NCBI GenBank assembly: GCA_024663395.1
Contig: JANFAH010000002.1
Location: forward strand, 1,178,001 to 1,242,000
Reading direction: 5' to 3'
Source: Pisolithus tinctorius
Taxonomy: Eukaryota > Basidiomycota > Agaricomycetes > Boletales > Pisolithaceae
Length of the DNA stretch: 64,000 bases
Of the stretch, positions 2,933 through 40,961 are shown piece by piece. The notes beneath the pieces were generated by a model, which searched no databases, was not told where the DNA came from, and was given only the letters and a program-made list of their open reading frames with translations. Every line of letters starts with the position of its first letter. Positions within the stretch are counted from its first letter, which is position 1. The translations under genes and the position numbers were made by a program.

Positions 2933-3149
2933 TGATCCAACAATCTATCTTCCCTGTCCATCACATGGCCTCTCCAAGGTCATGTTAGGGTTACCAGTAA
3001 AAAATCTGACCAGCTCTGACATACCATCTATCCATTGCCATTTGGTGGAAGGTTTTGTGGGAGGAGCTGGTTCCTCCTCCAAGTGATGTCTGTAGTTGGA
3101 GCCATCAATGGAATTTACTTAATGTGTGATCAGTTATGTATATCCAAAT

Positions 3150-4641: not shown

Positions 4642-5334
4642 TCTGAATGTTGGAGAAGGTGCTGGGGTTGGTTAGTTGCAGGTAATGTTACCCTCTGTTG
4701 AAAGAAAATTTGGAGTCCATTCCTCATAGTTACCATCCACTTCAGGTAACCCATTTTCATAAGCATTTAGGCTGAAGTTTTTCTCCAAATCATCCAAGCT
4801 AAAAGCCACTCAGACCAGGTCATCCCAGGGACATCTGGCCATGTCCCAGGGCTATTTACAGTTTGCAGGACCTGGGATGTCCCATAATCCCAGCCCTTTG
4901 GTAATATATTTTGGGCTGTCCCATGACTGCCTTAGGTGTCAGGGGTCCTCAGCTCAAAAAGGTGCAGTTCATATTCACATTGAAATGCCACTTCTGATCA
5001 GAAAAACATACATAGCTGTCATGATCATCCAGGATGATGAGCACACCTGTCAAAGTGGGGGGATATGTGAGAGTCACTGCCATTCCAAAACCATGTAATA
5101 CAAATTATGTATTATGCACAGATTTGAAGAATACTGGGCAATCAGTGTGTTTGTGTGTGGTGTCATTTCCAGCCTCATACAATGCCTATGGCAGTGAGAA
5201 TTGAATTATTGTAATGAATGTTAATGGATTCAGACCTCTCCCATGAGTGCCTATGTATGTAAGTCCCCTGTTTTACTGCAACAGTGCTCCTTACTAAGAT
5301 CATACATACTAGATGCATCTCAGCCCCCCTCTCT

Positions 5335-5990
5335 GAAGGCCAGTGGAATGTCCCATGATAGCTTTGGAGGCCACTGTGGGATGTCCCACTCCCCTCTCTG
5401 GAGGCCAGTGGGATGTCCCATGATAGCTTCAGAAACTACTGTGGGACATCCCATCCCCCTCTCTGGAGGCCATTTGGATGTCCCATGATAGCTTCAGTGG
5501 CTACCATGGGACACCCCACCTCCCTCCCTCAAGGCTGATGGGATGTCCCATGATAGCTTTAGAGGCTACTGTGGGACATCCCACCCCCCTCCCTGGAGAC
5601 CAATGGGATGTCCCATGATAGCTTCAGAGGCTACTGTGGGACATCCCACCCCCCTCCCTGGAGACCAATGGGATGTCCCATGATAGCTTTAGAGGCTACT
5701 GTGGGACATCCCACTCCCCTCCCTGGAGATCAATGGGATGTCCCATGATAGCTTCAGAGGCTACTGTGGGACATCCCACTCCCCTCTCTGGAGGCCAGTG
5801 GGATGTCCCATGGTAGCTTCAGAGGCTACCATGGGACATCCCATCCCCCTCTCTGGAGCCCAGTGGGATGTCCCATGATAGCTTCAGAGGCTACCATGGG
5901 ACATCCCACTCCCCTCTCTGGAGACCAATGGGATGTCCCATGATAGCTTTGAAGGCTGCAGGCATGTCAGTCAATCCCCTTTGGAGACCC
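5335..5990 (+). repeat. ~60-bp minisatellite with GGGATGTCCC palindromes (left arm)
   Basis: About ten units, each carrying TGGGATGTCCCA, then GATAGCTTCAGAGGCTAC, then the complementary TGGGACATCCCA and a CCCCTCTCTGGAG spacer. Each unit can therefore fold back on itself. The inverse array is at about 8380-8745 in the other arm. Confidence 0.9.
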
Positions 5991-6394
5991 ATTAAGTCTG
6001 TTTATTTCTACAGGTTTACAGTATATACCTATGAGATCTCAATGGGTTGGGTATACCCAGCTGCTGCCATGGAAAGTGTTTTCTCCAGTACTATGCCTAG
6101 GGACTCTGGGGCAGCCATTAATTTCTCCTGGCATGGTGCTGATCATAAGTGTTTTGTGTTTTCCTCATGCAATTTTCCACTTGCTGATAAGATAAGCATA
6201 CCATCATGATTGCACAATCAGGAGCTATAACTTTGATTATGATGACATCACTCCATTATCACTTGCTGGGGTGTTAACACCTACTAGTGCTAGTTGTAGT
6301 AGTTGGTAGTGCGGAATAGTGTAGGCTATGCTACACTTTGGTAGTGTGCATTTTTGGCTACTGTCAACTACGAAAAGTGTAGGGTCGAGCCAGA

Positions 6395-9327: not shown

Positions 9328-9607
9328 TTACCATCACCCATTCTTGAATAAAGTTCCAGGGGCTGAGTAATGTTCTGGTCATGATACATACCCATTGTTA
9401 GTATGGTCTTGTTCCAGTCAATCAGTACCATGGCCACACATGGTAAGCCAATTCATCTATCATCCAGTCTGCTACTATATATAGATAAAGTATAGTTTGA
9501 CTGACATTGATTCCAAGATCCAACTCAAATCATAGTTGTGCCAGGCATCACAATGAGGCATGTATGGCTGAGGCCTGCAGACATCCTGCAAGGACTTGAT
9601 ACTAGAC

Positions 9608-12050
9608 ATGGGCAAGTCACAAATCACCCAAGCTGCAGCAGCCACCCCAGTAACCCATGTCACTTGGAAAAAGGTGAAAACAACCAGGGGATCCAAAGAA
9701 AAGATGGTCAAGTTTACTCCAAGAAAGAAGGCAAGATATGCAACCAGCCAAAGCAATGAATCACCTACTAGGGCAGGATCTTCAAGCATCCAGGAACCCA
9801 ATTTAGTCCAGGGTAATGATGCTGACCTATATTGCTACATGGATGATGCATCACCACCAAGGACATCAAAAATTCCAAAAAGCCAGGTGTGCATTATCAA
9901 ACATCCCAGTGCTGGCAATGTGTGCCTTATGGTATTACAGAACAGTTATCTGGAAGAGTGGCTGCCCTATAGGAGTAGATACTTGTCTGTGCTCCTGGAC
10001 ATGGAGGCCCCACCCAATGTCATGGCTTGTTTTGTGTGTAAAGCAGAAGGGGCACCATATAGATGCATGGACTGTGTGCATCACCCATTGTCTTGTAAAA
10101 CATGTTGCATTGAGCAACACAAGCTCAGACCATTCCATTGGGTACAAAAATGGAATGGAAGATTCTTTGAAGACTTCACTCTATGGCTGATGAGTTCTGG
10201 TTTCAACCCATCATCTGTGATGACTGATATTGTAGGTTGGTTTGGTGCTACACTTGGGCTGTGCCAGAGCACCATGCCCAGCAGGAGAAGGTTCTTGGGA
10301 GGATGCTGCCAGCCATGTAGATGATGAGTGGGAGGACATTGAGGAGAGTCAACAAGCAGCACATCTCAACCCACCAGATGATAGAAACTATCTGACAGTT
10401 GTGGACACTGGCAGCATGCACTTTTGCAATGTGCAGTATTGCAACTGCCCAGGTCTGAGGATTCACATCTTCAGCTTACCATGGCCAGCCTATTCCCAGC
10501 TACAACTAAGGCACCAAGGACAGCTTTCACTTTCCAGGTGCTGGATGACTTCATCAGGGAAAATGTTGAATGTGGAACCTCCACCATGAACTATTATAGC
10601 AAACTTCAGAGAGTCACCTCAAGCACATTTCCTCACCTAGTGCTGGTGAGTGTGATCACCCCTGGCCTACCATATGCCACATCACTCATGCTGGTCAAAG
10701 AATAGGTATAGGGAATTGCTCAGGGTGTTGAGAATGTAGAGGCTCCTAAAGCTGTTGAAATGGCAGGGATTCCATCAACAGTCACCTGATCCCTGGGCTG
10801 GTGAACTTGTCCTCTTCTGCCCTGCCTGTCCCCAGCCAGGGATCAATGTACCAGATCAGGATATCGATCTCTCTGAGTCCATATTCTATTCATTATTGCA
10901 AAGGCATTGTTAGCCTGACTTGTGTAGCTGGCAGTTTGCTAGGAACTTTGTGATGGATGGCAACTTCAAGGCTGAGCATATGCTGCCCAAGAATGCTGCC
11001 AAAGAGGTCTGGCTCATGGATGGAAATGGCTTCATGGTCACATCGGCTCCATACAAGGAATATTTGACTGGGACCATAAATCAAATAGAAGTTGGTGTGC
11101 CATGATCTCTCCAAAGGCACTGGACTGATTGCATCATGCAGAAATCTGACTGCAATAACCACTGGGCTGTTAATCAAGCAAATGTACAAAGGAATAAGTT
11201 GGAATCAACCAGGATTGGTGGATGTGCCTGTGTGAGGCATGGCTGTTTTGTACCTCATGCAATGGTCAACTTTCAGAAGGGAGAGCAGTATGCACCAATT
11301 CATAGTCCCTGGTCATGACTAACAATATAGCAGGCAGGTCAATATGGATTATGCTCTGGTCCATGCCATGCACCATGGATTGGACCCCCAGCAACTGGTC
11401 ATAACCTTTTATGACATCAATTGTCTGTATAGCAAGAACTTGGCCTGCTGGCTTGAGGAAAATAGATATCTCTCTCTGCCTTCTGGATTACAGATTCAGC
11501 CCAGCATTGGACTATGGCATGTCCATGGCCATCAGACAGAGTGCTTTGCCAGATATGCTCCAAACTTTATTCTGGGTGCTGGCCAGGTGGATGGTGAAAT
11601 CATGGAGACCCTCTGGTCTTCTCTCAACATAATCTCACCATCAGCCTGGGGAATGGTGACAGCACATCGTCAGGAGTTGATGGACTTCCAAATGAATGAT
11701 AGTAACTTCCTCAAAATGATATGCATGCATATGTCATCACAGTACCTGGTTGACCACCACTTGATTACTTGCACATAGCATTGGTATTGAAATGGAAGTT
11801 CAAGGTTGCCAAGCAGTCATTAGCAACAATCCAAGATAAATTCAACAAGTTGGATAGCAAGGTACCAGATGGCTTGCATCAGTTATGGGTGGAACAAGAA
11901 CTTGTGGTGCAGTCATGCCAGCGGAATACTCTGCAGGCCATGGACATATATGAAGTCCAGCTGGAGAAGGGTAAGGGGGCCAACTGTATCATCTGTCCCA
12001 TAACTTACATACATCATGGTAGCACCCACCATGAAAGCCATTGAGATTGA
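9608..12050 (+). pseudogene. KDZ-type transposase (CxC cysteine-cluster), decayed
   Basis: Plus-strand pieces in family order. A basic N-terminus starts at the ATG at 9608. The cysteine cluster comes next (CFVCKAEGAPYRCMDC, about 10030-10080), then CKTCCIEQHKLRPFHW, then HFCNVQYCNCPG (about 10420-10450). TAFTFQVLDDFIRENVEC follows (about 10530-10580), then CPACP (about 10820), then VMDGNFKAEHM (about 10950-10985). Later pieces are SAPYKEYL, NNHWAVNQANVQ, FYDINCLYSKNLACWL (11408-11455) and GQVDGEIMETLW (11582-11620). These match the Kyakuja-Dileera-Zisupton transposases of mushrooms, which are nuclear DNA-cutting enzymes. Frames change several times and stops occur (for example 10322-10324 and 11776-11778). 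Some breaks may be introns, but overall it looks inactive. No terminal repeats of its own were found. Confidence 0.85.
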
Positions 12051-12279
12051 CCTAATCCATAACAACCATTCATTCAGCAGCTCACATGGTTCAGCTACTT
12101 GGATTGCATGGGCATTAAAGGTTGAGCAGGCTCAAGTAGTGCTTGCTATGGATACATGACAGATGGATGCCAGGGCAACAGAGGCAGACCAGTTGTTGAT
12201 TTCATGCTGGCAAGACCAGTTGCAATCACAGATTGATGCACTAGTACATGGAGCAGCCCAGTTCATTGGAAATGACTGG

Positions 12280-12492: not shown

Positions 12493-15319
12493 TAAGGAAC
12501 AACCCCACCTCTTGACACCGTCCACTCGCTGTCCCCGGTTGAGCTCCAAGCTCTCTGGACTTTCATCGATGAGAACCTCACCACTGGCTTCATTTGGCCT
12601 ATGTCCTCCCCTTATGCTGCACCAGTCCTCTTTGTCAAAAAGAAGGATGGCTCCCTCCAGCTCTGTGTAGACTTCTGCAGCCTCAACAAAATCACTAAGA
12701 AGGACTGCTACCCACTCCTGCTCATCTCTGACCTCTTAGATTCACCAAGCCAAGCCAAGATCTATACTAAGATTGATCTTCAGCATGCTTACCATCTTGT
12801 CTGGATTGCCCTGGGCAATGAATGGAAGACTGCCTTTTGGACTCAGTATGGATCCTATGAGTGGTTGGTAATGCCCTTCAGCCTCACCAATGCCCTGGCT
12901 GCTTTCCAGTGCTTCATCAATACTATCTTCATGGATATGTTAGACATCTGTGTGGCATCTACCTAGATGACATTTTAATCTACTCCAGAGATAAGGAGTC
13001 CCATAAGCAGCATGTCCAAGAGGTGCTCCACTGGCTTCAGCTTCACAGCCTTTATGTGAAGCCAGAGAAATGTGAGTTTCACTTGGACTCAGTTGAATAC
13101 CTCAGATTCCACCTTTCCCCTGCCAGCCTCACAATGTCAAAGGAAAAGGTCCAGACCATCTGCAATTGGCCTGAGCCTTGCGAGGTCAAGGACATTCAGT
13201 CTTTCCTTGGCTTTGCAAACTTCTATTGCCAGTTTATCTTTAACTATTTGTACATCATTGTACCGTTGACTCAGCTGACCCACAAGGGGGCTCCTTGGAA
13301 CTTCTCTGAGGAATGCTGCCAGTCATTCAACAACCTCAAGGCTGCCTTCACCACTGTGCCAGTCCTAACTCATTTCATCCCCAGGGTTCCTATCACCGTT
13401 GAGACCAATGCTTTGGACTATGCCATTGCCAGCATTCTGTCTATTACTTGTGGTGATGGCCAGATTCATCCGGTCACTTTCTACTCCTGAACCCTAACCA
13501 CCCCAGAGTTGAATTATGATACTCATGACAAGGAATTGCTTGCTATTTTCGAAGCATTCCGGACCTGGTGCCACTACCTTGAGGGCTCAGCCTCACCAGT
13601 CAATGTTGTTACTGATCACAAAAATCTTGAGTACTTGTCTACCTAAGTACTCACCTGCCACCAAGCTCGCTGGTCAGAATTCCTGTCTCAATTCAATATG
13701 ATCATCAGATTCAGACCCGGTAAGCTCAGGGCTAAGCCTGATGCCCTAACTAGACAATGGGACATCTACCCCAAAGAGGGGGATAGCAGCTATGCCTGAG
13801 TGAACCTGCAGAACCTGAGACTGGTCTTCACCCAAGAGCAACTAGTGGTCTCCCTTCATGCAACCTACCTCAAGTACCTGGTCTTATGAGCAGTTGCACT
13901 GATGGATATAGAGAAACTTCATAATGATATCCTGACTGCACTGCTGGATGACCCAGTCTCACAAATCTGCCTGTCTGACATGTCTGATCCCCAGTGGTCA
14001 GTGGATGACACTGGTCTCCTTTGGCTTGATGGAAGGATCTACATGCTGGATTCAAACAACCTTCACCTTAGGGTCTTGCACCTCAAGCATGACCACCCTC
14101 TGTCTGGCCACTTCAGCCAAACTGCACACTAGAACTCATACAGCAGGAGTATACCTGGCCTGGCCTCAGGACATTTGTCAAAGACTATGTCCAGTCTTGC
14201 ACAGCCTGCACTCAGGCTAAGGTTCCCTGCCATCAGCATTACTGCCTCCTTAAACAACTCCTGGTGCCAGAGAAGCCATGGAACTCCATCTCTATGGATT
14301 TCATCGAGCAGCTTCTGGCCTCATCTGGCTTCACAGCCATCCTTGTAGTAGTTGACTGGCTTTCCAAGCAGGCCATATTCATCCCCACCCATGACACCAT
14401 AACAGCCCCAGAACTTGCCAAACTCTTCTTACTCCATGTCTTTTCAAAGCACAGAGTACTGGCCCATGTAACCTCAGACCAAGGCTCGGAGTTCATCTCC
14501 CACTTCTTCTGGTCACTTGGTAAGGCCCTAGACATGTGCTTACACTTCACCTTGGGCTACCACCCTGAAGGTGATGGTCAGACCAAAAGGACCAACCAAA
14601 CTCTTGAGCAATATCTCCAAGTGTACTGCAACTACCAGCAGGACAACTGGGCCAACTTACTACCCCTGGCCGAGTTCACTTATAACAATGCCCCTAGTGC
14701 TACTACCAGTGTTTCCCCTTTCTTCACTAATAAGGGCTACCATCCCAGTATCCCAGTATACCCTGAGCACGACCTTACCTCTGCTCAGGCTTGCAATTAT
14801 GCAGTCAACCTGGATTCACTGCACCAATACCTATGTGAGGAAATGACCCTTGCACAACAGTGCTACCAAGGACTGGCTGATGCCAAACACATGCTGGCCC
14901 TGGACTTCAAGGTTGGTGACCAGGTGTATGTCAAAGCTAAATACTTCTGGTCAACCCAGCCTTCCAAGAAACTCTCAGAAAAGAACCTTGGACTGTATCT
15001 GGTCATAGCTCAGGCAGGTACCCATTCATTCACACTGCACCTGCCAGACTCAATGCACACAGTCCACCCAGTCTTCCATGTCTCCCAACTTGAGCCAGCC
15101 ATCCCTAACACCATCCTGAACCAGACTCAACCACCACCCCCACCAGTTGAAGTCGATGGAGAACTAGAGTTCGAGGTAGCCAAAATCCTTGACTCCAAGG
15201 TTGATGAAGGGACAGATGAAGAAACCACTTGGGTACTTGCTACTGAACTTGACAATGCCTCTGAACTTGTGCAAGAGTTCCACTCCCACTACCCCAGTAA
15301 ACCCAGCCCATTCCAATGA
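12493..15319 (+). pseudogene. pol: Chromovirus pol remnant (RT, RNase H, integrase)
   Basis: Reverse transcriptase runs from 12493 and keeps YLDD, but a one-base loss near 12949 shifts the frame. RNase H follows at about 13390-13750. Stops occur at 13486 (TGA), about 13645 (TAA) and 13796 (TGA). Integrase spans 13900-15319, with the zinc-binding region broken near 14130. The catalytic core keeps MDFIE and TSDQGSEF, but the third acidic residue is Lys (GQTKRTNQT, about 14576). The GPY/F-like region remains. The C-terminal chromodomain has lost 16 residues at about 15203 relative to the young copy, including its aromatic core. It cannot make a working enzyme set. Confidence 0.93.
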
Positions 15320-18578: not shown

Positions 18579-19089
18579 TGTCATAGTCATGCCTTGACCC
18601 TGGCTGGACTTGGCCTCACACTCATTCAGTCCAGCCCTGGCCTTGCCTGTCCCATATCTCCAGTTGGTCTAGCACAGTGAACACTGCTTTGCAGTGTCTG
18701 TCACTTTGGTTGAATCCTGCCCAGTCCTGTCCCCAGTCTCCATCATCTTTGTCATACCTTACTAATACCTGTCTTACCAATCTTCTTAGCAATCTTTGCA
18801 AGACCAGCATTACCGGTCTCTGTACTATATTGTCTCTAGTATATAAAGTCTTAGATACTCAGCCTGTACTTCCTCAGTCTGAAATCAACTAAGTTTATCC
18901 TGTTAACCCTGCCTCAGCCTCAGACTCAGACTGAGACCCATGCAAGAGAATAGTGCTGTAGCCTCAGTTGCTAAGTCCAAACAGTCCAACCATCTGTATC
19001 CTTGACTCCCCTCCTGATCCTGACCCCTTGGCCTCATGCCTGCTTCAGTCTCTGGTCTGGCCTCAACCCAGACAACCCCAAACTTGACA
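18579..19089 (+). repeat. 3' LTR of the old chromovirus copy
   Basis: 511 bp, TGTCA to TGACA, preceded by the polypurine tract AAGAGGGGGATA (18566-18577). Aligned with the young LTRs it differs mostly by CG to TG/CA. A GTATATAAAG-like box lies near 18840. Confidence 0.92.
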
Positions 19090-19560
19090 CCATGCAGTCA
19101 TTGGACACATGGTCAAGTCAGCATAACCAAGATATGCAGGATGCCTTGCAGCACTGGCTGTCAGTTTTTACTAATGTCTCTGTAATCTCTAACCAGACCA
19201 CACCCTTTCACTGGGACCCACACTCACAATCCAATTGGTATGACATGCTGGTCATGGTTGGCAATTATGAAGATTGTGTATTGGATATCCCCATGCTTGG
19301 CCTTCAGTTCCTTTACAACCCTGGCACTGTAGTTGCATTTTCCAGCCAGCTTCTTAGTTCTGTGGGTGGGAACCAATGTTACTTTGCCTACTACATGAGG
19401 GATAACATACACAATTGGATAGGGATACCCTGTGGGGATTGGATGAGAGTTCAGAATGTCTGGACTTGGTTGATGCCTGCAGGTCTGGTGGGACCTTCCA
19501 TATAACCTACACTTATCCAATAGGGGGTCCATGTAAAGGTAGTTCTATAGATATTATATG
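19090..19560 (+). pseudogene. TET/JBP-like 2OG-Fe(II) dioxygenase fragment
   Basis: Directly abutting the 3' LTR is a frame with the C-terminal half of a fungal TET/JBP protein: NQTTPFHWD (HxD iron ligands, about 19192-19218), NWYDMLVMVGNYEDCVL, YNPGTVVAFSS and FAYYMRDNIH (about 19380-19410). These enzymes oxidise 5-methylcytosine or thymine. The distal iron-binding His expected after the GTVV segment is not found (LLSSVGG), and the N-terminal half is absent. It is therefore a dead fragment. Confidence 0.75.
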
Positions 19561-21690: not shown

Positions 21691-21884
21691 TTATCCTCTA
21701 TTCTGGCATATTTGCACTACACCCAGACCCTTCAGTCATGTGTAGTCCTGAAAGTGGGACTAACTGATGTCGGCTGCTGGGCCCTGAGGGTGGGTAGGCC
21801 AACATGTGAAAGAAGGTTCAGCCAAGGTCACCCCCACCCCATGAAAGTGGCATTGGCTGACATCACTAGTGAATGGTACCATCC

Positions 21885-22560
21885 CCTGAGAATGTCATTG
21901 GCTGACCTCACTCTTGGAGGGCCCTACCCCCTGAAAGTGGGATTGGCTGATGCACCACTGGAGTGTGTTACCCCCTGAAAGTGGGATCAGTGGATGCACA
22001 ACTGTAGGGTGTTACCCCCTGAAAGTGGGATTGGCCAATGCACCACTGTAGGGTGCTACACCCTGAAAGTGGGACCAGCTGATGCACCACTGTAGGGTGT
22101 GACCCCCTGAAAGTGGGATCAGCCAATGCACCACTGTAGGGTGTGACCCCCTGAAAGTGGGATTGGCCAATGCACCACTGTAGGGTGTGACCCCCCTGAA
22201 AGTGGTATTTGCTGATGCACCACTGGATGGTCATACACCCTGAAAGTGGGATCAGCTGATGCACAACTGTAGGGTGTTACCCCCTGAAAGTGGGATCAGT
22301 GGATGCACCACTGTAGGGTGCTACCCCCTGAGAGTGGGACCAGCCAATGCACCACTGGATGGTCATACCCCCTGAAAGTGGGATAGGCCAATGCACCACT
22401 GTAGGGTGTGGCCCCTGAAAGTGGGATCAGCCAATGCACCACTGGATGGTCATACCCCCTGAAAGTGGGATTGGCCCATAGCATTGGTGGGTGATCTCAC
22501 CCCTGAGGGTGGAGTTGGCTGACCAAACTAGGGGGTAGTCCTACCCCCTGAAAGGATCAG
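21885..22560 (+). repeat. 44-bp minisatellite
   Basis: About 14 units of the form ACCCCCTGAAAGTGGGAT plus a variable ATGCACCACTGTAGGGTG part. Unit starts at about 21968 and 22012 give the 44-bp period. More diverged units extend on both sides (about 21770-22700). Confidence 0.9.
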
Positions 22561-22931: not shown

Positions 22932-24464
22932 TTACATCTTCACTTGTAGCCACGAAGATGTTCCTCTTTTTCCCTGTGTAAGGTGAATGGAATTTTCAGG
23001 GATGGAGAACATGAATGTCTTTGCTGGGAGGGAAGAGCCATCAGGCCCTTTTCCCTTTCCACATTCAGCATAGCAACACCCATAAGAAATAAATTCCCCT
23101 GCTGACCCCCAATGCCACTTCTGCATGGTTGCACATTGAGGACATGCAACTGGCAAGTGATGACCCCAGGGTCTGAGATGCTTGTCAGTCCAGATATACT
23201 TTTCTACCTCCAGTTTTTCTTCCTGCCAAACAATCAAAATGATGTTTGAGTGCCTCCCAAGTTTGGCACAGTCCCACAAAGCATCCTTCACTGCATTTCT
23301 GAAATGAAAACCTTCAATCATAGTTTTGTGCAGGAGACTCTGGAGGTAGGGTGCTGTTGTAGGGATTTGGAGCCTTGGAGCATCAAAGAGGAGGATGGTC
23401 CTTGGCTTGAAACTAGCAAGTGTCAGGGATGAGTCAGCATCAAAGGAGGAAACTTACAGTTTGGCAGCCTGTTTTACTCCATTGAAGCTCTGTGCCTCTG
23501 TAACCACAGAACCACAGACATAGAACACCATGTCAGCTCCCTCTATAACCTCAGCAAGGGGGGTAAGAAGGAGTTGGAGAACCTGGACAAGGTTAGCTGG
23601 GGGAGCCAAAGGGAGGGGATGGCACTCACCTGAAAGACTTGAGATGCATGGGGGTTGCTATCCTCATCATAACCAGCAAAGAGATCACCCCTGTCTTCAT
23701 CACTGTGAGTGGTGAGGAAAATGACCACACTTGGATAAGAGGAGAGGGAGGTGGCCGGGCTTGTTGCTGCCTTTTGGTATGTAGCCTGGGTATCTTGGGT
23801 GGCCAGGTTAAAAGGTAACTTGGAGAAGGAGTAGGCTTTGTTAGGAAAATAGGCCTGGAGAAAGTCATTAACCATGTTGACCTGGGCCTGGCCAACCTGT
23901 AAAGTCTCCAGGTGAAGATGCACCAGTGCTGTTGGGAGGGAAGCCACCTGGGATGCAGTGGCATGCTCAAAGACACCTTTGAGGTGAGGGGGATTGGGAA
24001 GGACAGGTTCCCCTTTGGAGTAGAAAGCCTTGACATGTTTCAGTTTAAGTATGAAGAGGGCTGGGGAGTTTGGACTTACAAGGTAGGGCTTTGCTTCACC
24101 TCTGGTTTGCTTCCAGTGACAACAGACACACTTGAACTTGACATGGTCTTGTTGCACCTTCTGCAAATCCTCTACAGGGACAACTAAACACAGATCACAA
24201 ACCACTCTGTAACATCCTCTCTCCTGACAAGTCCACATCTTTCCACCATCCCTACACATAACACAGTGCTGGGGTAGATGTAAGATGGTGTACAGCAGAT
24301 AGGAAAGCACTCACAGAATTTGTACCAGGCTGCAACTTGATCTTTTTGACAGGCCTCTTGGAAGCCACCTTTGCCTGTGCCTTTTTCTTCTGGAGGGTGA
24401 AAAGGTTGAGCCTTGGGGCAAGGCCCCCAGTTACCTTCTTGGCAGTCTGTTTAGTTCTGGCCAT
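22932..24464 (-). CDS. Histone H3-tail mimic / PHD-ADD-like / possible caspase-like protein (5 exons)
   Basis: Exons on the minus strand: 24464-24315, 24268-24080, 24028-23630, 23582-23458 and 23412-22932. All junctions are GT-AG with phases that agree, giving 447 aa with no internal stop. The 24029-24079 intron is a multiple of three and could be retained. Residues 2-18 copy the H3 tail (ARTKQTA at 2-8, then K, T-G-G, A-P-R). A basic stretch runs to residue 50. Cys 52, 55, 64, 69, 74, 77, 97 and 100 form a PHD/ADD-like zinc domain. VVIFLTTHSDED (His221) and VFYVCGSVV (Cys269) are 48 residues apart, as in caspase-type dyads. A CPQC...CC...C zinc-ribbon-like segment lies near the C-terminus. 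It may bind or compete for H3-tail readers; that function is inferred. The intact frame suggests recent or current constraint. Confidence 0.8.
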
Positions 24465-24699: not shown

Positions 24700-25830
24700 G
24701 GGACTTACTAGGCAAGTGGTCTTTCTGTCATCAAAAATGCATTGGATGGAATGCATGTGGTGAGCTGTTGACAAGTGCAGACACTTCTGTTACACTGAGT
24801 GCAGAGATGGAGGGCAGTGAGTCTGAAAGAAATGAACATGGGGGTGGGGGGGACTTACTGGGTTTGCTATGGTTGTGTTGTGGGGACACAGCAATGTGCA
24901 GGGGCTGGCTGCAGCAACGGAGGGCAGTTATTCTGAAAGAAATGAACATGGGGGTGGGGGGGACTTACTGGGTGTGCTATGGTTGTGTCGTGGGGACACA
25001 GTGACATGCAGGGGCTGCAGCAATGGAGGGCAGTTATTCTGAAAGAAACAAACATGGGGGTGGGGGGGACTTACCAGATGTGCTATGGTTGTGTCATGGG
25101 GACACAGTGATGCATGGGGACTGGCTGTGGCAACAGAGGGCAGTTATTTTGAAAGAAATGAAGATGGGGGTGGGGGTGGGGGGGACTTACCAGGTGTGTT
25201 ATAGTTGTGTCATCAAGGACACAATGATGTGCAGGTGCTGGCCATGGAAATGGAGGGCAGTTAGTCTGAAAGAAATGCACATGGGGGTTGAGGGGGACTT
25301 ACCAGGTGTGCTGTAGTTGTGTCATCAAGGACACAGCGACATGGGGGGCTGGCTGTGGAAATGGACAAACATTAGTGTAAAAGAAGAAAAGTGGGGTAGG
25401 GAAGGACTTACCTGGCAGACTGCAGTCATGTCATCAAGGATGCAGGACATACAGGGTGATTTTAGGGGACTTACCAGGTGTGCTGTGGTTGTGTCATTGA
25501 GGACACAGCGATGCAGGGGGACTGGCTGTGGAAATGGACAAACATTAGTGTAAGAGAAGAAAAGTGGGGTAGGGACAGACTTACCTGGCAGACTGCAGTC
25601 ATGTCGTTGAGGATGCAGGATGCATGGGGTGATTTTAGGGGACTTACTGGGCGTGCTGTGGTTGTGTCATCGAGGACACAGCGATGCAGGGGGACTGGCT
25701 GTGGAAATGGACAAACATTAGTGTAAAAGAAGAAAAGTGGGGTAGGGATGGACTTACCTGGCAGACTGTGGTCACATTGTCGAGGATGCAGGACATGTGG
25801 GGTGATTTTATGGATGTGGGTGTAGAGGTG
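24700..25830 (-). repeat. Array of repeated mini-exon/intron cassettes
   Basis: The minus strand repeats a unit of about 109-116 bp: an acceptor (CATTTCTTTCAG or CCATTTCCACAG), a 50-75 nt exon encoding variants of PxHHCVxxDTTxxxxP, then the donor GTAAGTCC. Donors recur near 24854, 24963, 25072, 25188, 25302, 25407, 25472, 25587, 25647 and 25752. The 51-nt exon near 25490 keeps frame. It could be the body of a fast-evolving gene starting near 26020 or a decayed duplicate array. The H3-mimic gene starts 240 bp downstream on the same strand. Confidence 0.7.
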
Positions 25831-30472: not shown

Positions 30473-31849
30473 TTGACATCATCCCCCCTCATGGCTGCTT
30501 TGCCCCTTACTGATCCTGCCCTGTCTGCCCTTCTTGACCAGATTTTGACATCTGCTCTGGGGGGATCCAAACTCTCATCCAGCCAGGTGTTAGAGAGAGA
30601 TGACCTCAGGAAGCCAAGGCAAGGTTTTTCTGACTCCACATCCCCTGGGGGAAGGACTGATGGAGTCTCATAGACTTAGAGTACTGTCAAAATTGAACCA
30701 TCTGGTAAAATCTATGTCAGGGGAAGATCTTCCCAAGACATCCATTTCTGACTTGGAACTCCAACTTTCTGCCCTTGTGATTGCCCATGCAATCCTTAAC
30801 CCTTGTGAGCCCTTTCTCCCATGCCCTACACCCCATTTCTCAAGTCTGGCAACAGATGTCACCCAGTGGGATGGTGATCAGTTTGCTGACTCCATGAGAG
30901 GGGTCAAGGCCAAATATTACAAACCTCCACAATGGGGGCATATCTGGGACCCTGCCATGGTCCTCACTCACCATGGCAGGGTATTGGTGTGGTATCTCCC
31001 TGGCATCATGCCTTCCCAAAGGGTGGTGAGTCCATTTTTCTCTTAGTCCTTCCTGCACTTATCCCACCTAGGAGTGTTTGAATCAAATTCATCTTCCCCT
31101 GAAAGATGTGCTGGTTGAGGAGGCCCAAAACAAGAATCCTTCCAACAAAAGGTTTGGCCACAGACATGTGCCCCAAACAGATCCAAATGATGGTGCCCTT
31201 GATGTCCCGCCAGTCTTGGAAGGAGTGTTTGGTCATGGCAGGCTTATGAATTCCCCTGCCACTTTCCAGCAGGCTCACAAGGTCTCCTGTTTGTCCATCT
31301 GGTCCAGATCCTCAGGCTGATGCCTCTTGCAGAGATTGGAGGACCCCCTCTACCAAAGTCCTAGTCTGGGGAGTGGTCCCATGAAGCAATGGCTCAGAGA
31401 CATTGCCTATGCAGAGGACTTCTGGAACTCCATTTGCAAGGTGGTACTGCCAGATCTGGCCCAAGTTGGCAAGGATGCCATGCAAGCCAAAGAAGACTTT
31501 GGTTGTGACCAAAAATCCTTCCCAAACCTCTTGGCCTTCCATCTATGTTGGCATAGATGTCATAGTCAACCAAACAACTCCTCTACACACTGACTGAATC
31601 TCTGCACCCTCTCTTTTGGATTTGGTGGTCAGCCTGGGAACCCACAATGCTAAATTCCATGTTCCAGATCTGGGCACCATTTTTAATTATCCCCCAGGCA
31701 CCATGATTTACCTTGCAGGCAAAATCCTCCTACACTCAGTACCAAGCACATTTCATTGCTCACTCCCCACTGGGGCTATGACCACCAGAATTGAGGTGTG
31801 GCATGCTGGAGCATGCCCCATGAAACTGGCACCATGTGCCTTCCAATAG
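30473..31849 (+). pseudogene. TET/JBP-like 2OG-Fe(II) dioxygenase, decayed
   Basis: The N-terminal family block WDPAMVLTHHGRVLVWYLPG is at about 30945-31005, with a GTGAGT donor soon after. WNSICKVVLPDLAQVGKDAM is at about 31408-31470. SIYVGIDVIVNQTTPLHTD, with the HxD iron ligands, ends at 31594, followed by a TGA at 31595-31597 where the frame otherwise continues. GTMIYLAGKILLHSV supplies the distal His (about 31700-31740). A frame change near 31520 and the TGA make it a pseudogene. Family members oxidise methylated bases in DNA; in mushrooms they are expanded with KDZ transposons. Confidence 0.78.
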
Positions 31850-32084
31850 CATCCACTCAAAGCATCAGAAATGCACATGGGCACATCTGATCACCAAGTC
31901 TAGTAGTGATTTATACCTGGGTGATGAGTATTACAAAGTCTACCATTGGACCATTTTTGCATTTCTGTCACTTTGAGGGGATGCTATTGGAAGGCACATG
32001 GTGCCAGTTTCATGGGGCATGCTCCAGCATGCCACACCTCAATTCTGGTGGTCATAGCCCCAGTGGGGAGTGAGCAATGAAATG
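31749..32084. repeat. Inverted duplication of the TET/JBP 3' end
   Basis: Arms 31749-31874 and 31960-32084 are near-perfect inverse copies around an 85-bp spacer. The left arm contains the last ~100 bp of the TET/JBP coding sequence. Confidence 0.88.
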
Positions 32085-32159
32085 TTTTTGATATGTTTTG
32101 GCAATCTCCACTATTTTATTCCATACCTGTTTGGAGAATCACCCAACCCATTTGGTAAA

Positions 32160-32620
32160 AGCCTCATTTGGGTCCTTTTTGGTATGGGGAAAGTCCCATG
32201 GAGACCCTATTTCAGCTGGAGAAAGCACCATTTGGTGTGGAGAAAGTCCCATGGAGGCCCTATTTCAGCTGGAGAAAGCACCATCTAGGTCCTTTTTGGT
32301 GTGGGGAAAGTCCCATGGAGGCCCTATTTAAGCTGGAGAAAGCACCATTTGGGTCTTTTTTTTGCATGGAGTAAAGGCCCATTAAGGCCCTATTTCAGCT
32401 GGAGAAACTCTCATTCTGGTCTATTTTTACATGGAGAAAGTCCCATGGAGGTCCTATTTCAGCTGGAGAAACCCCCATTTGGGTCCTTTTTGGCATGGAG
32501 AATGTCCAATGGAGGTCCTATTTCAGCTGGGAAAACCCTCATTTGGGTCCTTATTGGCATGGAGAAAGTCCAATGGAGACCCTATTTCAGCTGGAGAAAG
32601 GCCCATATGGACCCCAGTCA
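32160..32620 (+). repeat. 63-bp minisatellite
   Basis: About seven units containing GGAAAGTCCCATGGAGGCCC, TATTTCAGCTGGAGAAA and a CATTTGGGTCCTTTTT part. The 63-bp period keeps one frame open for about 160 codons (21-residue repeats), which is expected from the period and is not evidence of a protein. Confidence 0.88.
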
Positions 32621-32689
32621 CTCTGACATATTTGGGGAAACATATATTAATTGTGGAGAAATCCATTTCTCCAGCACTATCCCAGGAGA

Positions 32690-32850
32690 AATCCAAAGGG
32701 GGCCTGGAGAATCCCCAGGCATGGTGCTGGAGAAAAAACTTTCCCCACCAGTGGTTGGGGATACCCAACCTGTCAAGACCTCATAGGTATATACATCTGT
32801 AGAAATATGTAGACCTAATAGGTCTCCAAAGGTGGTTGACTGAAGTGAAA
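32690..32850 (+). repeat. Fragment related to the arm and terminus of the giant-TIR element
   Basis: Shares GATACCCAACCTGT, AGACCTCATA(A/G)GTATATA and GGTCTCCAAAGG with 8277-8356 and ends GACTGAAGTG, close to the element terminus CCTGAAGTG. It could be the right end of a smaller relative whose left end I could not place. Confidence 0.5.
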
Positions 32851-33071
32851 GGATAGTGCTTGCTCACCACATGAAGGATGCTGTCCATAACAGATAGGGA
32901 GTAGCCAGGCCTGCTTTCACACAACAGAAGGACCTTCTAGGGAAGTTTTTGCAGGGATAGCTCCAGCTTGTATGTACTGGAATGCATTTCAATGTTATGC
33001 CTATGTCTTTCCTAGGCAGCTTTGACTCCAAAGATATCTTTGTCATTCCTAGCCAAAATCATTCCTAGCTG

Positions 33072-33441
33072 ATGTCATTACTAGCTGATGTCATGCCTAG
33101 CCAGTGTCCATCAGAGTTTCCTTGGGGGATGGCTGACAGTTTGAAAAAAAAACTCTGCTACCTCAGCATGCAAAGACAACGGTACAGAGTACTGGGCAAG
33201 AGCTCTGGTGGCCTGTATACCTTTCAGCCCATCAAGACCAGAAGAGGAAAGCTTGCCTACAAGGAGGTGGATGCCAGCCCCTTGTACCTCCCATCTCAGA
33301 GTGGACCTTCCACTCCAAGGACCCCCAGGGCTATGGCCTCACAGCATGTAGACTCCTCTGACTTCCCAGTCCCCCTTGACATCCCTGCCTCCCACTGGAA
33401 TGAGGGAGATGATGCCCTGAAGCCCAAGAGGGTCACCAAGG
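33072..33441 (+). pseudogene. KDZ transposase 5' exon fragment
   Basis: The plus frame has a variable N-terminus followed by SSDFPVPLDIPASHWNEGDD and LKPKRVTK (about 33355-33440), then the donor GTAAGT at 33441. This is the usual first-exon layout of KDZ transposases in mushrooms, judged from memory of the family. The rest of the gene is missing; retrotransposon sequence starts about 120 bp on. Confidence 0.6.
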
Positions 33442-33562
33442 TAAGTAGTTTGACTTCCATGCTGTATGATGGATGGGCTAAAACCTCACACAGAGTCAGA
33501 ATGAAGGACGAGGGTTTTTAGACTTCATCCAGGACTTGAATAGCCAGCAATGAGATGGTTCA

Positions 33563-36500
33563 ATGGGATCGGCCACCCCTGTAAGGCTGGGATATCTTGC
33601 TCAGCCTATAGTGGTATATAAGAAAGAAGCAAGTACATACATCTCGGACTTCGACTCACCATTTCAAGATATAACTGAAAACAGAAAACAAGAATCGACA
33701 TTAGACATAGAGGCGACCAGCCATAGAGTTTCTTTTAGATCGAGCATGAATAACACACTGACTTTTCCTGCAGGTATAGAAATAGAATCACAAGATGTTT
33801 ATCGCAAGGATGCAGGACAGTATCGAAGAGACGAACCCTTTCATAAGGGACACAAAGAAGGAAGAATGGATAGGAGCATCGAGGGAGAAAGTCGAAGTGA
33901 AGAAACAGAGATTGAATGCCCAGGGACAGGACCAAAAGGTTACAAGATGATGTTTGCGGTGACAGAGGAGGACTTCAAGTCCTTGGGTTTACATTTTGAA
34001 TCTTATTTGGTGGAGAGTCTGACCACCAAGCTACAGGACGAGGAGGAAAGGATAAAGCAAGTGATGAAGTACAAACCCGTGGCAAAGAAGGTTCAGCTGG
34101 TGGCAACAGAGACACCGGCAGAGTTTAGAGTCAAGAGGAGGGAAGTGGGGGACCCATTGGCTAGCCTCCCCCAGAGTTCACACCTGGGGAATGACTTACA
34201 CAGGAGCAAGCAGACAAGTTCAAATGGGACCCAGGCGGATTTTTGTGGCCCAAAGAATTCAAACTAGTCAAGTGGCTAGTATGAATCCACAAGAAGGCTT
34301 TCGCTTGGGACACGAGCGAAAGAGGGACATTCAGAGAAGATATGTTCCTGCCTCTCAAGATTCCAACGGTCCTGCACAAGCCATGGGTGTATCGGAATAT
34401 ACCCATTCCACCAGCGATCTATGGGGATGTTGTGCAAATAATCAAGGAAAAGATCACGGCGGGAGTTTATGAACCGTCGACTTCGTCTTATTGATTGAGA
34501 TGGTTTTGTGTAGTGAAGAAGGATGGGAAATCACTGCGACTGGTCCACGACTTACAGCCACTCAACGCAGTCTCAATTCAGGATTCAGGAGTTCCCCCGC
34601 ACATAGACAGTATTGCTGAGGAATTCACAGGACACACGGTATATGGCATGTACGACCTTATGGTTGGTTATGACCACTGAGTGATCCACGAAGACTATCG
34701 TGACCTTACGACCTTTCAAACACCAATTGGCACATTCAGGTTGACCAAACTCCCCATGGGCTACATGAATGCAGTACAAGTGTTCCATGGGGATGTGTCA
34801 TTTACTCTCAGGGAGGAAACACTGGAAGTAACTGTGCCATTCATTGATGACATACCAGTAAAAGGACCACAAATGAGGTACATGAGAGAGGACAGAACAT
34901 ATGAAACAATTGAAGGGAATTCAGGGATCAGGAGGTTCATATGGGAGCACCTCATCAATACTAATCAGGTTCTACAGCGCCTCGAGCACATCGGAGCTAC
35001 CATCTCTGCAAAGAAATTTGCAGTGGCGGTCCTGTCTATCACTGTAGTGGGACACAAGGTTTCGTACAAAGGCCAAATACCTGACGAATCCAAGGTACAG
35101 AAGATTCGAGATTGGCCCTACTGCAAGAATGTCACAGAAGTGTGAGGCTTTTTAGGCCTCTGCAGCTACTGTCACATCTTCATCTGAGACTATGCAAAAA
35201 GAGTGAAACCATTGATCGAGTTGACCAAGAAGGGAGTAGTCTTCAGATTCGATGAAGTACACGAAGCAGCCATGGATGACTTGAAAGAAGTGCTCGCCAA
35301 CTTGCCAGCATTAAGACCGATAGATTACAAGTCAGGACGGCGAGTCATTTTAGCTGTTGACACCTCGCACATGGCAGTAGGCTACCTGCTTTTACAGGTT
35401 GGAGAAGATTCGAAGCGTTATCTGTCAAGGTTTGGATCAATTGCATTCAATGAAAGGGAAAGTCGTTATAGCCAGGCAAAGCTAGAGTTGTTCGGCCTAT
35501 TTTGTGCACTTCAGGACATATGCAACCACATATTTGGAGTTAAAGATTTAGCTGTGGAAGTCGACGCCAAGTACATCAAGGGTATGATCAATAACCCTGA
35601 CCTGCAACTGAATGCGACCATCAATCAATGGATTGCTGGTATACTCCTCTTCGAGTTCGAACTGATACATGTACCGGCGGAGAAGCATAGAGGCCTGGAC
35701 AGGTTATCAAGGAGACCTCGAGCTAATGAGGATCCGGAACCAGAAGATGATTATGAAGATTGGATCGACGAGGTAGGATCGTTTGCAGTCGAACTCCTCA
35801 ACCCTCAGTGAGGCAAACGAGAAGAAGCTTTCTTTCAAAGTCAAAAGGTAGTCGAACCGAATCTAGGATGGATCCCCTATGTTGGAAAACAGAGATCAGA
35901 GAGGTCGAGCAAAGCGACCGAGAACCAGGTGGTTTTATTGCAGGTGTCAGGGATGGATGCTACCGTTGATATAGAAATCCCCAGGACAGAAAAAGGGAAG
36001 TGGCAAGATGAATGGTTGGAGGTAGTTCGCAAATTCCTCGAAAATCAGCAGCGACATGTCAGACTTAGATCTGAACATGTTAATCAAATATGCGGCGAGA
36101 TTCTTCTTGAAGAATGGAGAACTGTGGCACCGAGAACCGAGGGGACAGCATCAAGTAGTACCTGCATATGAGAAACGCTTGGAGTTGATGAAGCAAGCGC
36201 ATGATGATTTGGGCCACAAGGGAGCATTTCCCACTAAGTCGAGATTACTGATCCGCTTTTGGTGGCCATTGCTAGTTCGAGATGTACAGTGGTTCCTCTG
36301 TACCTGCCACAAGTGTCAAATTCGATGCATGGATAAGATCCATATCCCACCTGTCATAGCCATGCCCAAACCTCTGTTTTACAAGGCATACATGGATTCA
36401 ATGGTGATGCCGAAGTCAAATGGGTTCCAGTACATAGTACAAGCTAGGTGTTCTCTGACTTCATATCCTGAGTGGCAGATGCTGCATGCAGAGACAGGAC

Positions 36501-37207
36501 AGACCTTAGGATGGTTCATATTCGAACAGATCTTGTGTAGGTGGGGTGCCATAGGGGAGATTGTCATGGACAATGGCTCTGCATTCAAACAGGCCCTTGC
36601 CTATCTCACAAAGAAGTACGATATCAGGCATATAAAGATTTCAGCATACAATTCTCAAGCCAACGGAGTTGTCAAGAGAAGACATCTGACCATTCGAGAG
36701 GCTCTCGTCAAGACTTGTGAAGGCAAAATAGGCAAATGGTCGTTGTATGCACCATTGGTGTTCTGGGCTGAAAGGGTGACAACACAAAAGTCAACAAAGC
36801 TTTCGCTGTATCAGATGGTCCATGGGATTGAGCCAAGATTGCCATTCGACTTCGCCAAAGCGACCTTTCTGACAAATTGGGACAAGGATAAGTATTTGAC
36901 CGAAGAACTGATATCGTATAGGTGCCACCAGCTCCAGCGAAGACAGGAAGACTTACAGTGGGTTCATCAACAAGTATACAAGGCATGGTGCCAGATGGCA
37001 AAGGAGTTCAAGCAGAGGGTAAAAGGGTTGATACGAAGCTACAAGTTCGAACCCAGAGCACTAGTTTTAGCTCACAATACAAGGATCGAGAAGGAACTGG
37101 ACTGCAAGATGAAGCCAAGATACTTAGGTCCCATGGTAGTCATCAGGCAAACTGAAGGGGGTTCATACCTATTAGCTGAGCTTGACAGCTTGATTTCCCA
37201 ACTTTGA
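33563..37207 (+). pseudogene. pol: Second Ty3/gypsy lineage: gag-pol remnant (5'-truncated)
   Basis: Pre-RT region at 33563-34267, including EEFRVKRR-like and DPLASLP motifs. Reverse transcriptase at about 34200-35150 has PFIDDIPVKGP as its YxDD-equivalent. RNase H follows at about 35200-35720 (LAVDTSHMAVGY, VEVDAKYIKGM). Integrase runs from 36056 to 37207, with zinc-binding region H..H..C..C and catalytic MDSMVM and VMDNGSAF. The expected Glu is Lys in ANGVVKRRH (about 36672). In-frame TGA stops at 34492, 34678, 35143 and 35186 all sit where relatives have Arg, consistent with CGA to TGA. This is a lineage distinct from the chromovirus: no chromodomain. No LTR pair was identified. Confidence 0.88.
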
Positions 37208-39495: not shown

Positions 39496-39533
39496 GTATT
39501 TCAGACTCTCCACTTGTGTGGGTCTAATACATC

Positions 39534-40907
39534 ATGGCAACCAAGACTCGCTTCCAACCTCCCTGTGGCTGTTCTGCCACCAATCCCGACTCTGCTTCAG
39601 CCAGTGGGGCTCACCGTGAAACAGCTCTAGCTGCGTTGGGCACCACTAGGCGCTCCCCAGACCCCGTCAGTCCTTTCAGGGGCTTTTCAGCCCGCACATC
39701 CAATACCCCCACTCCACGTCGTCCCACTGCCCCCGTCCCTGAGGGTGACCTGGGTGATGATGGACCAGGCGACGATGATGATAATAACCCAGATAATGAT
39801 GACCCCGGCAACGGTCCCGGCGATGATGGGCCCGGTGATGATAATCCGGATGAGGATGATCTGGAGGATGAACCGGACTTCCCAGACCTGGACACCGAAC
39901 CCGCGGTCGCGGTCTTCGACAGTCTCGCGAAGGCCATCAAGCTGTTGGCTCGCAACGCCTGTACTACCCCTGAGTCCTCAAGTAGGACCAAGTTACGTGA
40001 GCCCGACACCTTTGATGGCACCGACCCCAAGAAGCTTCGCGCATTCTTCATCCAGTGCGAACTTAACTTCCAAGACCGACCCTGGGCTTTCAGGACCGAC
40101 CGTGCCAAGGTCATCTTCGCCCAGTCGTACCTCAAAGGCATGGCCTTAGAGTGGTTCGAGCCAGACTTACTCAGGCTCGACGACCCCGATGACCGGCCTC
40201 TCTGGATGGACTCCTGGAGGGAGTTCGTCTTAGAATTGTAAACCACCTTCAGACCCCATGACCCGGTTGCTGACGCCGAGAGCCAACTCGACCACTTGCA
40301 CATGAAGGAAAGTCAGCGCATTAATAAATACGTAGTCGACTTCAATTGGCTTGCCTCGCAAGTCCGAGGCTATGGTGACAGTGCACTGTGCCATCATTTC
40401 TATTCCAGCCTCCCAGACCGAATCAAGGATGAGGTCTGTCGGGTTGGCAAACCCTGGACACTTCACGAGCTCCGCCACCTCGCCCAGGAGATAGATGCGC
40501 ACTATTGGGAGCGCAAGGAAGAAGTCCAGCGGGCAAGTAAGCACCAAGGCTCGTCTAACTCCAGCAACAATAAGTCCGGAGGTTCCGGCAACAACAGTCA
40601 GGCCAAGACCGGTCAGGAGAAAGCCAAGACTGGCAACAACAATAACAACTCCGGTTCTTCCCCTAAGCCGGGTAATAACAGCAATTTGTCCAAGCCCGAG
40701 CCTAGCAAACTCAGCAAAGATGGAAAGCTCACCCCAGAGGAACGCAAGCGTTGCCTAGACGGAAACCTCTGCATGTTCTGCGGAGGGTCCAGTCATTTTG
40801 CTGACAAATGCCCCAAGAAAGCCGGAAAGGCCAAAGCTCGCACTGCAGCTACCACCGAGGCCGTACCGGCCTCGGGCTCGGGTTCTACCCCTGAGACAAA
40901 AAAATAG
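39534..40907 (+). CDS. gag: Gag polyprotein (one premature stop)
   Basis: 457 codons from the ATG at 39534, 38 bp after the 5' LTR. An Asp/Gly/Pro-rich acidic N-terminal region (about residues 70-120) is followed by a retrotransposon Gag capsid-type helical region (PDTFDGTDPKKLRAFF onward). A Gly/Asn/Ser-rich linker leads to a zinc knuckle CMFCGGSSHFADKC (CX2CX4HX4C, about 40769-40813). A TAA at 40239-40241 interrupts the capsid region in the same frame; one C to T change (CAA) would explain it. The gene ends TAG at 40905-40907 right after a run of seven A. Confidence 0.92.
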
Positions 40908-40961
40908 GTAGCAGCTCCCAGGACTCCACACAATCTGGGAGCTGCGTTGACTCTGGTTGTG
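40898..40961 (+). promoter_or_regulatory. Predicted -1 ribosomal frameshift signal between gag and pol
   Basis: Slippery heptamer A AAA AAA at 40898-40904, in the gag frame and immediately before the gag TAG. A 6-nt spacer follows, then a perfect 11-bp stem: GCAGCTCCCAG (40911-40921) with CTGGGAGCTGC (40935-40945) around a 13-nt loop. Loop CACAA (40929-40933) can pair with TTGTG (40957-40961) to form an H-type pseudoknot. Pol lies in the -1 frame, open from 40895. Confidence 0.85.

What the first reader, a model, noticed from the sequence alone, without database searches (positions are those of the whole stretch)
22932..24464. Gene whose protein begins with a copy of the histone H3 tail, fused to a PHD/ADD-like domain and a possible caspase-like dyad
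The sequence shows a five-exon frame, 447 aa, no internal stops. After Met removal the protein would start ARTKQTA, exactly H3 residues 1-7, with 14 of the first 18 positions the same as H3 (K4, K9, T11, G12, G13 and R17 equivalents kept; R8, S10, K14 and K18 changed). A C4-C4 zinc domain of the kind that reads H3 tails follows directly. His221 and Cys269 sit 48 residues apart in hydrophobic-strand contexts (VVIFLTTHSDED, DMVFYVCGSVV), recalling caspase/CHAT proteases. A mobile-DNA-associated protein carrying its own H3 tail could compete with, recruit or be modified by the host silencing machinery. The tail match is observed; the function is inference.
Basis: partly seen in the sequence, partly recalled or inferred. 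Interest (0 to 1): 0.92.

Follow-up and report, generated by a model that had tools for sequence, protein, structure and literature searches.

The report
Transposon protein wearing a histone tail
Jumping DNA elements of the mushroom Pisolithus tinctorius carry a gene whose predicted protein starts with a near-copy of the tail of histone H3, followed by a predicted histone-reading zinc finger and a predicted caspase-like protease, and this protein likely helps the element escape silencing by the fungus.

Summary
In detail: window 24464-22932 (-) gives 447 aa in five exons, and residues 2-18 match H3 1-17 at 14 of 17. All named relatives found are Pisolithus or Suillus. At least 9 of 17 tail matches occur in 77 of 97 Pisolithus and 36 of 79 Suillus proteins; the tail is strong in two of three deep clades, eroded in the third. 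The zinc domain resembles PHD fingers; His221/Cys269 are invariant where aligned and predicted models match caspase-like proteases. New: the gene lies inside a TET-bearing Kyakuja (KDZ) DNA transposon, mostly 16-17 kb, with CA..TG ends and 7-bp target duplications in 9 of 12 copies tested. Likely role: anti-silencing; the tail would lure H3 writers or readers, and the caspase-like domain would cut them. Anatomy is well supported; expression, tail position in the real protein and function are untested, and the deposited model of this locus omits the tail exon.

The parts
22932..24464 (-). H3-tail gene, 5 exons (24464-24315, 24268-24080, 24028-23630, 23582-23458, 23412-22932), 447 aa
   Evidence: homologues
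24411..24461 (-). codons 2-18: ARTKQTAKKVTGGLAPR, 14 of 17 as in H3 1-17
24113..24265 (-). PHD-type zinc domain, residues 52-102 (C52, C55, C64, C69, C74, C77, C97/C99, C100)
   Evidence: profile A5 versus PDB; coordinates
23220..23956 (-). caspase-like (clan CD) domain, about residues 138-352 (spans introns), H221 at 23707-23705 and C269 at 23516-23514
23061..23144 (-). C-terminal cysteine cluster (C378, C381, C400, C401, C405), a possible zinc ribbon
   Evidence: cysteine positions; pattern kept in homologues
21724..21760 (+). terminus of the window's Kyakuja element, CAGACCCTTCAGTCATGTGTAGTCC, preceded by CTACACC (21717-21723), a candidate target duplication whose second copy was not found
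21925..22475 (.). subterminal minisatellite (44-bp unit) of the element
24807..25810 (.). minisatellites upstream of the gene; the deposited model P0021 starts here
30855..32942 (+). TET/JBP-like gene of the element, divergent from the H3-tail gene, interrupted at about 31748-32846 relative to the C42 copy
   Evidence: the homologous ORF in L051 hits Pfam Tet_JBP; the window ORF 30594-31046 alone does not
33153..33504 (+). start of the KDZ transposase gene, cut off at about 33504 relative to the C42 copy
   Evidence: this part alone has no Pfam hit

Best explanation
This gene lies inside a TET-bearing Kyakuja (KDZ) DNA transposon, and its predicted protein, an H3-tail look-alike joined to a predicted PHD-type finger and a predicted caspase-like domain, likely acts as an anti-silencing factor for the element. 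Proposed mechanism, all of it inferred: the free N-terminus would be taken for the H3 tail by host H3 writers and readers, most likely those acting around K9 and K4; the PHD-type finger would dock the protein on H3; and the caspase-like domain would cut what the lure captures, while the neighbouring TET enzyme would oxidise 5-methylcytosine on the same element. Shown here: the gene structure in DNA, the tail and its conservation, the invariant His/Cys pair, the element ends and target duplications, and the linkage to TET and KDZ genes. Predicted: the folds. Untested: expression, N-terminal exposure, binding, cleavage and effect on silencing.
For: Linkage: 40 of 44 gene places of the second subfamily have the same element end within 8 kb, and 32 of them also the other end within 45 kb on the same strand; 7-bp target duplications in 9 of 12 copies examined; Tet_JBP and KDZ domains in the same element copy; the same gene order in the C42 copy of the window's own subfamily. 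Tail under constraint: between the two P. tinctorius subfamilies codons 2-19 differ at pS 0.84 and pN 0.18; K4 in 76 of 80 and K9 in 76 of 80 Pisolithus tails (threshold 7 of 17), 35 of 36 and 36 of 36 Suillus tails (threshold 9 of 17). A Met precedes the tail in 71 of 80 Pisolithus tails; where models run on upstream, the Met stays (47 of 54) while other upstream positions vary. The zinc profile's best hits are PHD fingers: CHD4 6.8e-6 (two fingers summed), PHF21A 8.6e-5, SP140 2.9e-4, AIRE 0.0013, several of which I recall as readers of H3 unmethylated at K4. Dyad: H 73 of 73 and C 75 of 75 rows with a letter, of 76 rows chosen from 176 proteins; clan CD matches. Published precedent for silencing-related cargo on Kyakuja: TET genes (PMC12730594).
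Against: No expression, localisation, binding or cleavage data. The deposited models of this locus and of a sister copy (P0021, P0001) omit the tail. In the second, far more abundant subfamily the copies read give VKTKQTA rather than ARTKQTA. K14 is kept in 31 of 80, K18 in 0 of 80 and S10 in 0 of 80 Pisolithus tails, so many H3 marks cannot be copied. One Suillus clade has lost the ARTKQTA start. The AlphaFold model orders residues 11-26 (mean pLDDT 79 for 11-20) but not 1-10, so half of the tail may serve packing inside the protein. Of two sister copies of the window's subfamily whose 10 kb upstream I read, only C42 showed TET and KDZ genes; the C2 copy (L083) gave no match. Casein kinase II beta matched more zinc segments (16 of 19) than PHD did (13 of 19), all weakly. 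TM-scores to caspases stay at or below 0.45. No substrate is known and a fold does not show activity. Element context was tested in one genome only.
Confidence: 0.37

Rival explanations
1. Built-in switch: the tail is a ligand of the protein's own PHD-type finger and keeps the caspase-like domain off; real H3 tails displace it and turn the protease on at chromatin.
Against: Residues 1-10, the part such fingers read (recalled), stay disordered in the model; A1 and R2 vary (V, K, T, P); no coordinates were at hand to see contacts.
Confidence: 0.25
2. Passive sponge: the tail only competes with H3 for writers or readers, and the caspase-like domain is an inactive scaffold.
For: Tail conservation; non-catalytic clan CD relatives exist (recalled).
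Against: His and Cys are among the best kept positions of the family (H 73/73, C 75/75), which a scaffold does not need.
Confidence: 0.12
3. The H3 likeness is a relic or structural: a short H3-derived or convergent segment kept because TGGxAPRVxL packs on the protein, with no dealings with H3 machinery.
For: Ordered 11-26 segment; members of the eroded Suillus clade keep TAKKxxxGG but not ARTK; no intron shared with the host H3 gene read, and saturated synonymous sites.
Against: Positions 3-9 (TKQTA-K), predicted disordered, are about as conserved as 11-17 in Pisolithus, and TKQT recurs in a Suillus clade.
Confidence: 0.14
4. A host gene (for instance a caspase-like cell-death or incompatibility factor) that merely hitchhikes in the transposon.
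For: Clan CD fold; several species.
Against: 40 copies sit at a fixed place beside one end of a defined element, with the same gene order in a copy of a second subfamily.
Confidence: 0.08

Closest known systems
TET-bearing Kyakuja DNA transposons of Agaricomycotina (PMC12730594)
   Same: KDZ transposase, TET/JBP gene, 5'-CA..TG-3' ends, 7-bp target duplications
   Different: carries a further, divergent gene with an H3 tail; the sections and passages read mention no such gene, and a word search of its main text found neither Pisolithus nor Suillus nor caspase; the two ends here look alike as an imperfect inverted repeat, while that paper reports no TIRs
Transposons carrying SET histone methyltransferase genes (HarbingerS and MuDR families of Phytophthora, named in a passage of PMC12730594)
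   Same: mobile DNA with histone-directed cargo
   Different: those carry a writer enzyme; this carries a copy of the histone tail itself
Viral histone mimics (e.g. hepatitis delta antigen, PMC6972770; search listing and start of abstract only)
   Same: a parasite protein copies a histone feature
   Different: here the copy is at the predicted protein's very start, spans 17 residues, sits on a transposon protein and is joined to a PHD-type finger and a protease fold
PHD fingers of CHD4, PHF21A, SP140, AIRE; ADD of ATRX/DNMT3
   Same: cysteine spacing and CRDGGxLxxC-type motif
   Different: eight-cysteine pattern rather than C4HC3; linked to a protease fold; many matches cover only the first half of the profile
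Clan CD proteases: caspases, CHAT, C11
   Same: predicted fold, H then C 48 residues apart, each after a beta strand in the models
   Different: no caspase or CHAT model among the Pfam rows shown; activity unknown
A host histone H3 gene (L056)
   Same: ARTKQTARKTTGG start
   Different: no histone model among the Pfam rows; introns at other places; different codons

Membership tests
TET-bearing Kyakuja (KDZ) transposon | KDZ transposase domain | tested here: met
   L052:6047-6655 (C6 copy) PF18758 E 1.9e-28
TET-bearing Kyakuja (KDZ) transposon | TET/JBP dioxygenase gene | tested here: met
   L051:367-921 (same C6 copy) PF12851 E 3.2e-9, 36.7 bits against a cut-off of 34.9
TET-bearing Kyakuja (KDZ) transposon | 5'-CA..TG-3' ends | tested here: met
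   CAGACC...CATGTG
TET-bearing Kyakuja (KDZ) transposon | 7-bp target duplication | tested here: met
   exact in 9 of 12 copies examined, out of 32 with both ends; 3 of 12 had none
TET-bearing Kyakuja (KDZ) transposon | no terminal inverted repeats | tested here: inconclusive
   by eye the ends are similar in inverted orientation but imperfect
TET-bearing Kyakuja (KDZ) transposon | window's own copy complete | tested here: not met
   one end at 21724; second end not found; TET interrupted and KDZ cut off
Histone H3 | N-terminal tail | tested here: met
   14 of 17; that it is N-terminal in the real protein is untested
Histone H3 | histone fold | tested here: not met
   no histone model among Pfam hits of the protein at E up to 10; none in the 25 families shown, of 42, for 76 members
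PHD finger | sequence profile match | tested here: met
   profile of 19 segments to PDB: PHF21A 8.6e-5, CHD4 6.8e-6 for two fingers together; Pfam PHD in 13 of 19 segments, best 3.5e-5, while casein kinase II beta matched 16 of 19, best 1.7e-4
PHD finger | C4HC3 ligand pattern | tested here: inconclusive
   Cys in the usual His place (C74), as in ADD-type fingers (recalled); alignment A5
PHD finger | H3 binding | not testable with these tools
   needs a binding assay
Clan CD cysteine protease | caspase-like fold | tested here: met
Clan CD cysteine protease | His/Cys dyad after beta strands | tested here: met
   H 73/73, C 75/75 of rows with a letter, 76 rows; strands end two residues before both in the two models; register against caspase catalytic residues not printed by the tools
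Clan CD cysteine protease | proteolytic activity | not testable with these tools
   needs an assay

The most novel reading that the evidence does not exclude
A DNA transposon family has evolved a baited chromatin protease: a free copy of the H3 tail draws in the host's H3 writers and readers, a built-in PHD finger anchors the protein to chromatin, and a caspase-like enzyme destroys the captured silencing factors, while the neighbouring TET gene strips the DNA mark; together a two-mark counter-silencing kit.
Probability: 0.3. Interest if true: 0.95.

Novelty: new variant of a known kind. Interest (0 to 1): 0.87.

Why it matters
Transposons are known to carry genes acting on DNA methylation (TET) and, in some lineages, histone methyltransferases (PMC12730594); a transposon carrying a copy of the H3 tail itself on a predicted reader-protease would be a new move in that contest, and a natural, evolution-tested probe of which H3 residues fungal silencing reads. 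It makes testable whether one element attacks histone-directed silencing alongside DNA methylation. The window protein reaches no Pfam cut-off and its relatives are named hypothetical or uncharacterized protein. No description of it appeared in the rows listed by nine searches of an open-licence library (two searches listed 15 of 28 and 15 of 752 papers); the 2014 PNAS paper on KDZ transposons and TET/JBP genes (recalled) was not held.

Tried and rejected

The counts use 44 gene places that I copied; I left out the window-type copies (C69, two on C2, C42, C18, C1:587-591 kb) and five short fragments (C19:9426, C67, C99, C106, C122). itself scored 91 of 268 candidates, so copy numbers are lower bounds. 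Target duplications were looked up for 12 of the 32 copies with both ends.

Full report
WHAT WAS CLAIMED AND WHETHER IT IS THERE. The five-exon, 447-aa frame at 24464-22932 (-) is real: introns of 46, 51, 47 and 45 nt, all GT-AG, no internal stop, His221 and Cys269. Residues 2-18 agree with H3 1-17 at 14 of 17; 200,000 shuffles of residues 2-50 never exceeded 9. The protein alone finds a histone H3.2/CENP-A chimera in the PDB at 6e-4 and histone H3 at 0.0016, the family profile finds H3 at 1.1e-5.

WHERE IT IS. The contig has 6,547,381 bases, the length listed for Pisolithus tinctorius proteins P0001 and P0021; the last 210 residues of P0021 are identical to residues 79-288 of the window protein. 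That deposited model starts in the minisatellite upstream (about 25796) and skips the tail exon. This is the main evidence against an N-terminal tail at this very locus; whether RNA supports that model is unknown to me.

THE FAMILY. Three searches gave 176 proteins; all that carry a species name are from Pisolithus or Suillus, two (P0003, P0007) carry none. Among 97 rows counted as Pisolithus (the two unnamed ones included) 77 have a tail with at least 9 of 17 matches; among 79 Suillus rows 36 do. With a threshold of 7, 80 of 97 Pisolithus rows count: K4 76, K9 76, T11 75, G12 78, A15 74 and R17 77 of 80 are kept; S10 is never Ser, K18 never Lys, K14 is Lys in 31. Two rows (P0030, P0054) match 16 of 17, differing only at S10. 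In Suillus (threshold 9) K4 is kept in 35 of 36, K9, G12 and G13 in 36, and S10 in 32. A tree of the protease-like part (84 rows; 139 passed the coverage filter, and Pisolithus was thinned to every fourth id number) shows three deep groups: Pisolithus (12 of 14 rows with a tail of at least 9), a Suillus group with TKQT tails (32 of 40), and a Suillus group with eroded tails such as MARTKI-STGGSAR or KNTAKKRAAGG (2 of 30, both only 9 of 17). Some rows without a tail are gene models cut short. A tail-bearing ancestor is the simplest reading; the tree was quick, midpoint-rooted and warned of long branches.

IS THE TAIL THE START? An in-frame stop lies four codons before the ATG in the window copy and in a copy of the second subfamily (L030). 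In 80 Pisolithus tails a Met precedes in 71: 30 models start there and 41 run on upstream. In 54 rows of both genera with at least six residues before the tail the Met is kept in 47, while at the five positions before it no residue occurs in more than 17. This favours the Met as start; it is not a transcript.

THE ELEMENT. A second subfamily (MVKTKQTAKKTTGG in the copies read) has at least 44 places in the genome. Copies diverge sharply after the same sequence...GAATCATGTG (55 matches, 40 of them with the gene within 8 kb), and begin with CAGACCCTTCAG (41 matches). Of 44 gene places 40 have that 3' end and 32 also a 5' end on the same strand within 45 kb; 22 of these 32 spans lie between 15.5 and 17.5 kb. 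Seven-base target duplications are exact in 2 of 2 and 7 of 10 copies. In the C6 copy there lie, on the other strand, a TET/JBP gene (3.2e-9) and a KDZ transposase gene (1.9e-28). Kojima 2025 (PMC12730594; outline and abstract, section 3.2, section 4.2 and found passages read) describes TET-bearing Kyakuja with CA..TG ends and 7-bp duplications, also in Boletales; the parts I read name no H3-tail gene. In the window's own subfamily the C42 copy has KDZ and TET genes before the H3-tail gene in the same order; a second copy on C2 (L083) showed no match to them in the 10 kb read. In the window the TET gene is interrupted and the KDZ gene cut off, one element end lies at 21724 and the other was not found. 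So the window copy is a broken element with an open H3-tail gene; several sister copies of the gene carry stops or frameshifts.

CONSTRAINT AND ORIGIN. Between the window gene and the second subfamily, codons 2-19 differ at 84% of synonymous and 18% of non-synonymous sites, which suggests that the tail is maintained by selection on the protein; the stretch is short. A host H3 gene reads ARTKQTARKTTGG, with an intron at the G13 codon by my reading; the transposon gene has no intron there and synonymous sites against it are far diverged (pS 0.85). Capture long ago or convergence cannot be told apart.

MECHANISM. Background: transposons carry TET genes that likely counter DNA methylation (PMC12730594); that fungal transposons are also silenced by H3 methylation is recalled. 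Inference: the H3-tail protein is the histone-side partner of the TET gene. K4, T6, K9, T11 and G12 are kept while K14 and K18 are not, which fits readers or writers of K4 and K9 rather than acetylation readers. The lure-and-cut model uses all three parts; the cis-switch model explains tail plus finger about equally well; a structural relic cannot be excluded. I give the lure model 0.37.

VERDICT. The anatomy is well supported and unusual; function is open. A transposon-borne H3 tail on a predicted reader-protease appears undescribed within the searches named.

Noticed in passing
window 24807-25810: Minisatellite units upstream of the gene contain GTAAGT...CAG intron-like motifs; the deposited model P0021 begins here and skips the tail exon.
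   Followed up: partly
window 9572-12144 and 18975-19505: Second KDZ transposase region (PF18758 at 11323-11778) and a second Tet_JBP frame on the + strand, apparently from other Kyakuja copies.
   Followed up: no
window 12496-15319, 34681-37207, 39528-44620: Gypsy-like frames; the last stretch has open frames of 704 and 536 aa (naming by eye).
   Followed up: no
L052, reverse strand about 3100-6200: Further frames between the KDZ core and the CAGACC end of the element, partly matched in the C42 copy, not identified.
   Followed up: no
L056 and L057 (contig C39): A host H3 gene pair with Thr at position 10 (ARTKQTARKTTGG) and an unusual AAKSAGSKKTIH stretch.
   Followed up: no
Pisolithus versus Suillus tails: S10 is lost in all 80 Pisolithus tails (threshold 7 of 17) but kept in 32 of 36 Suillus tails (threshold 9 of 17).
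   Followed up: partly
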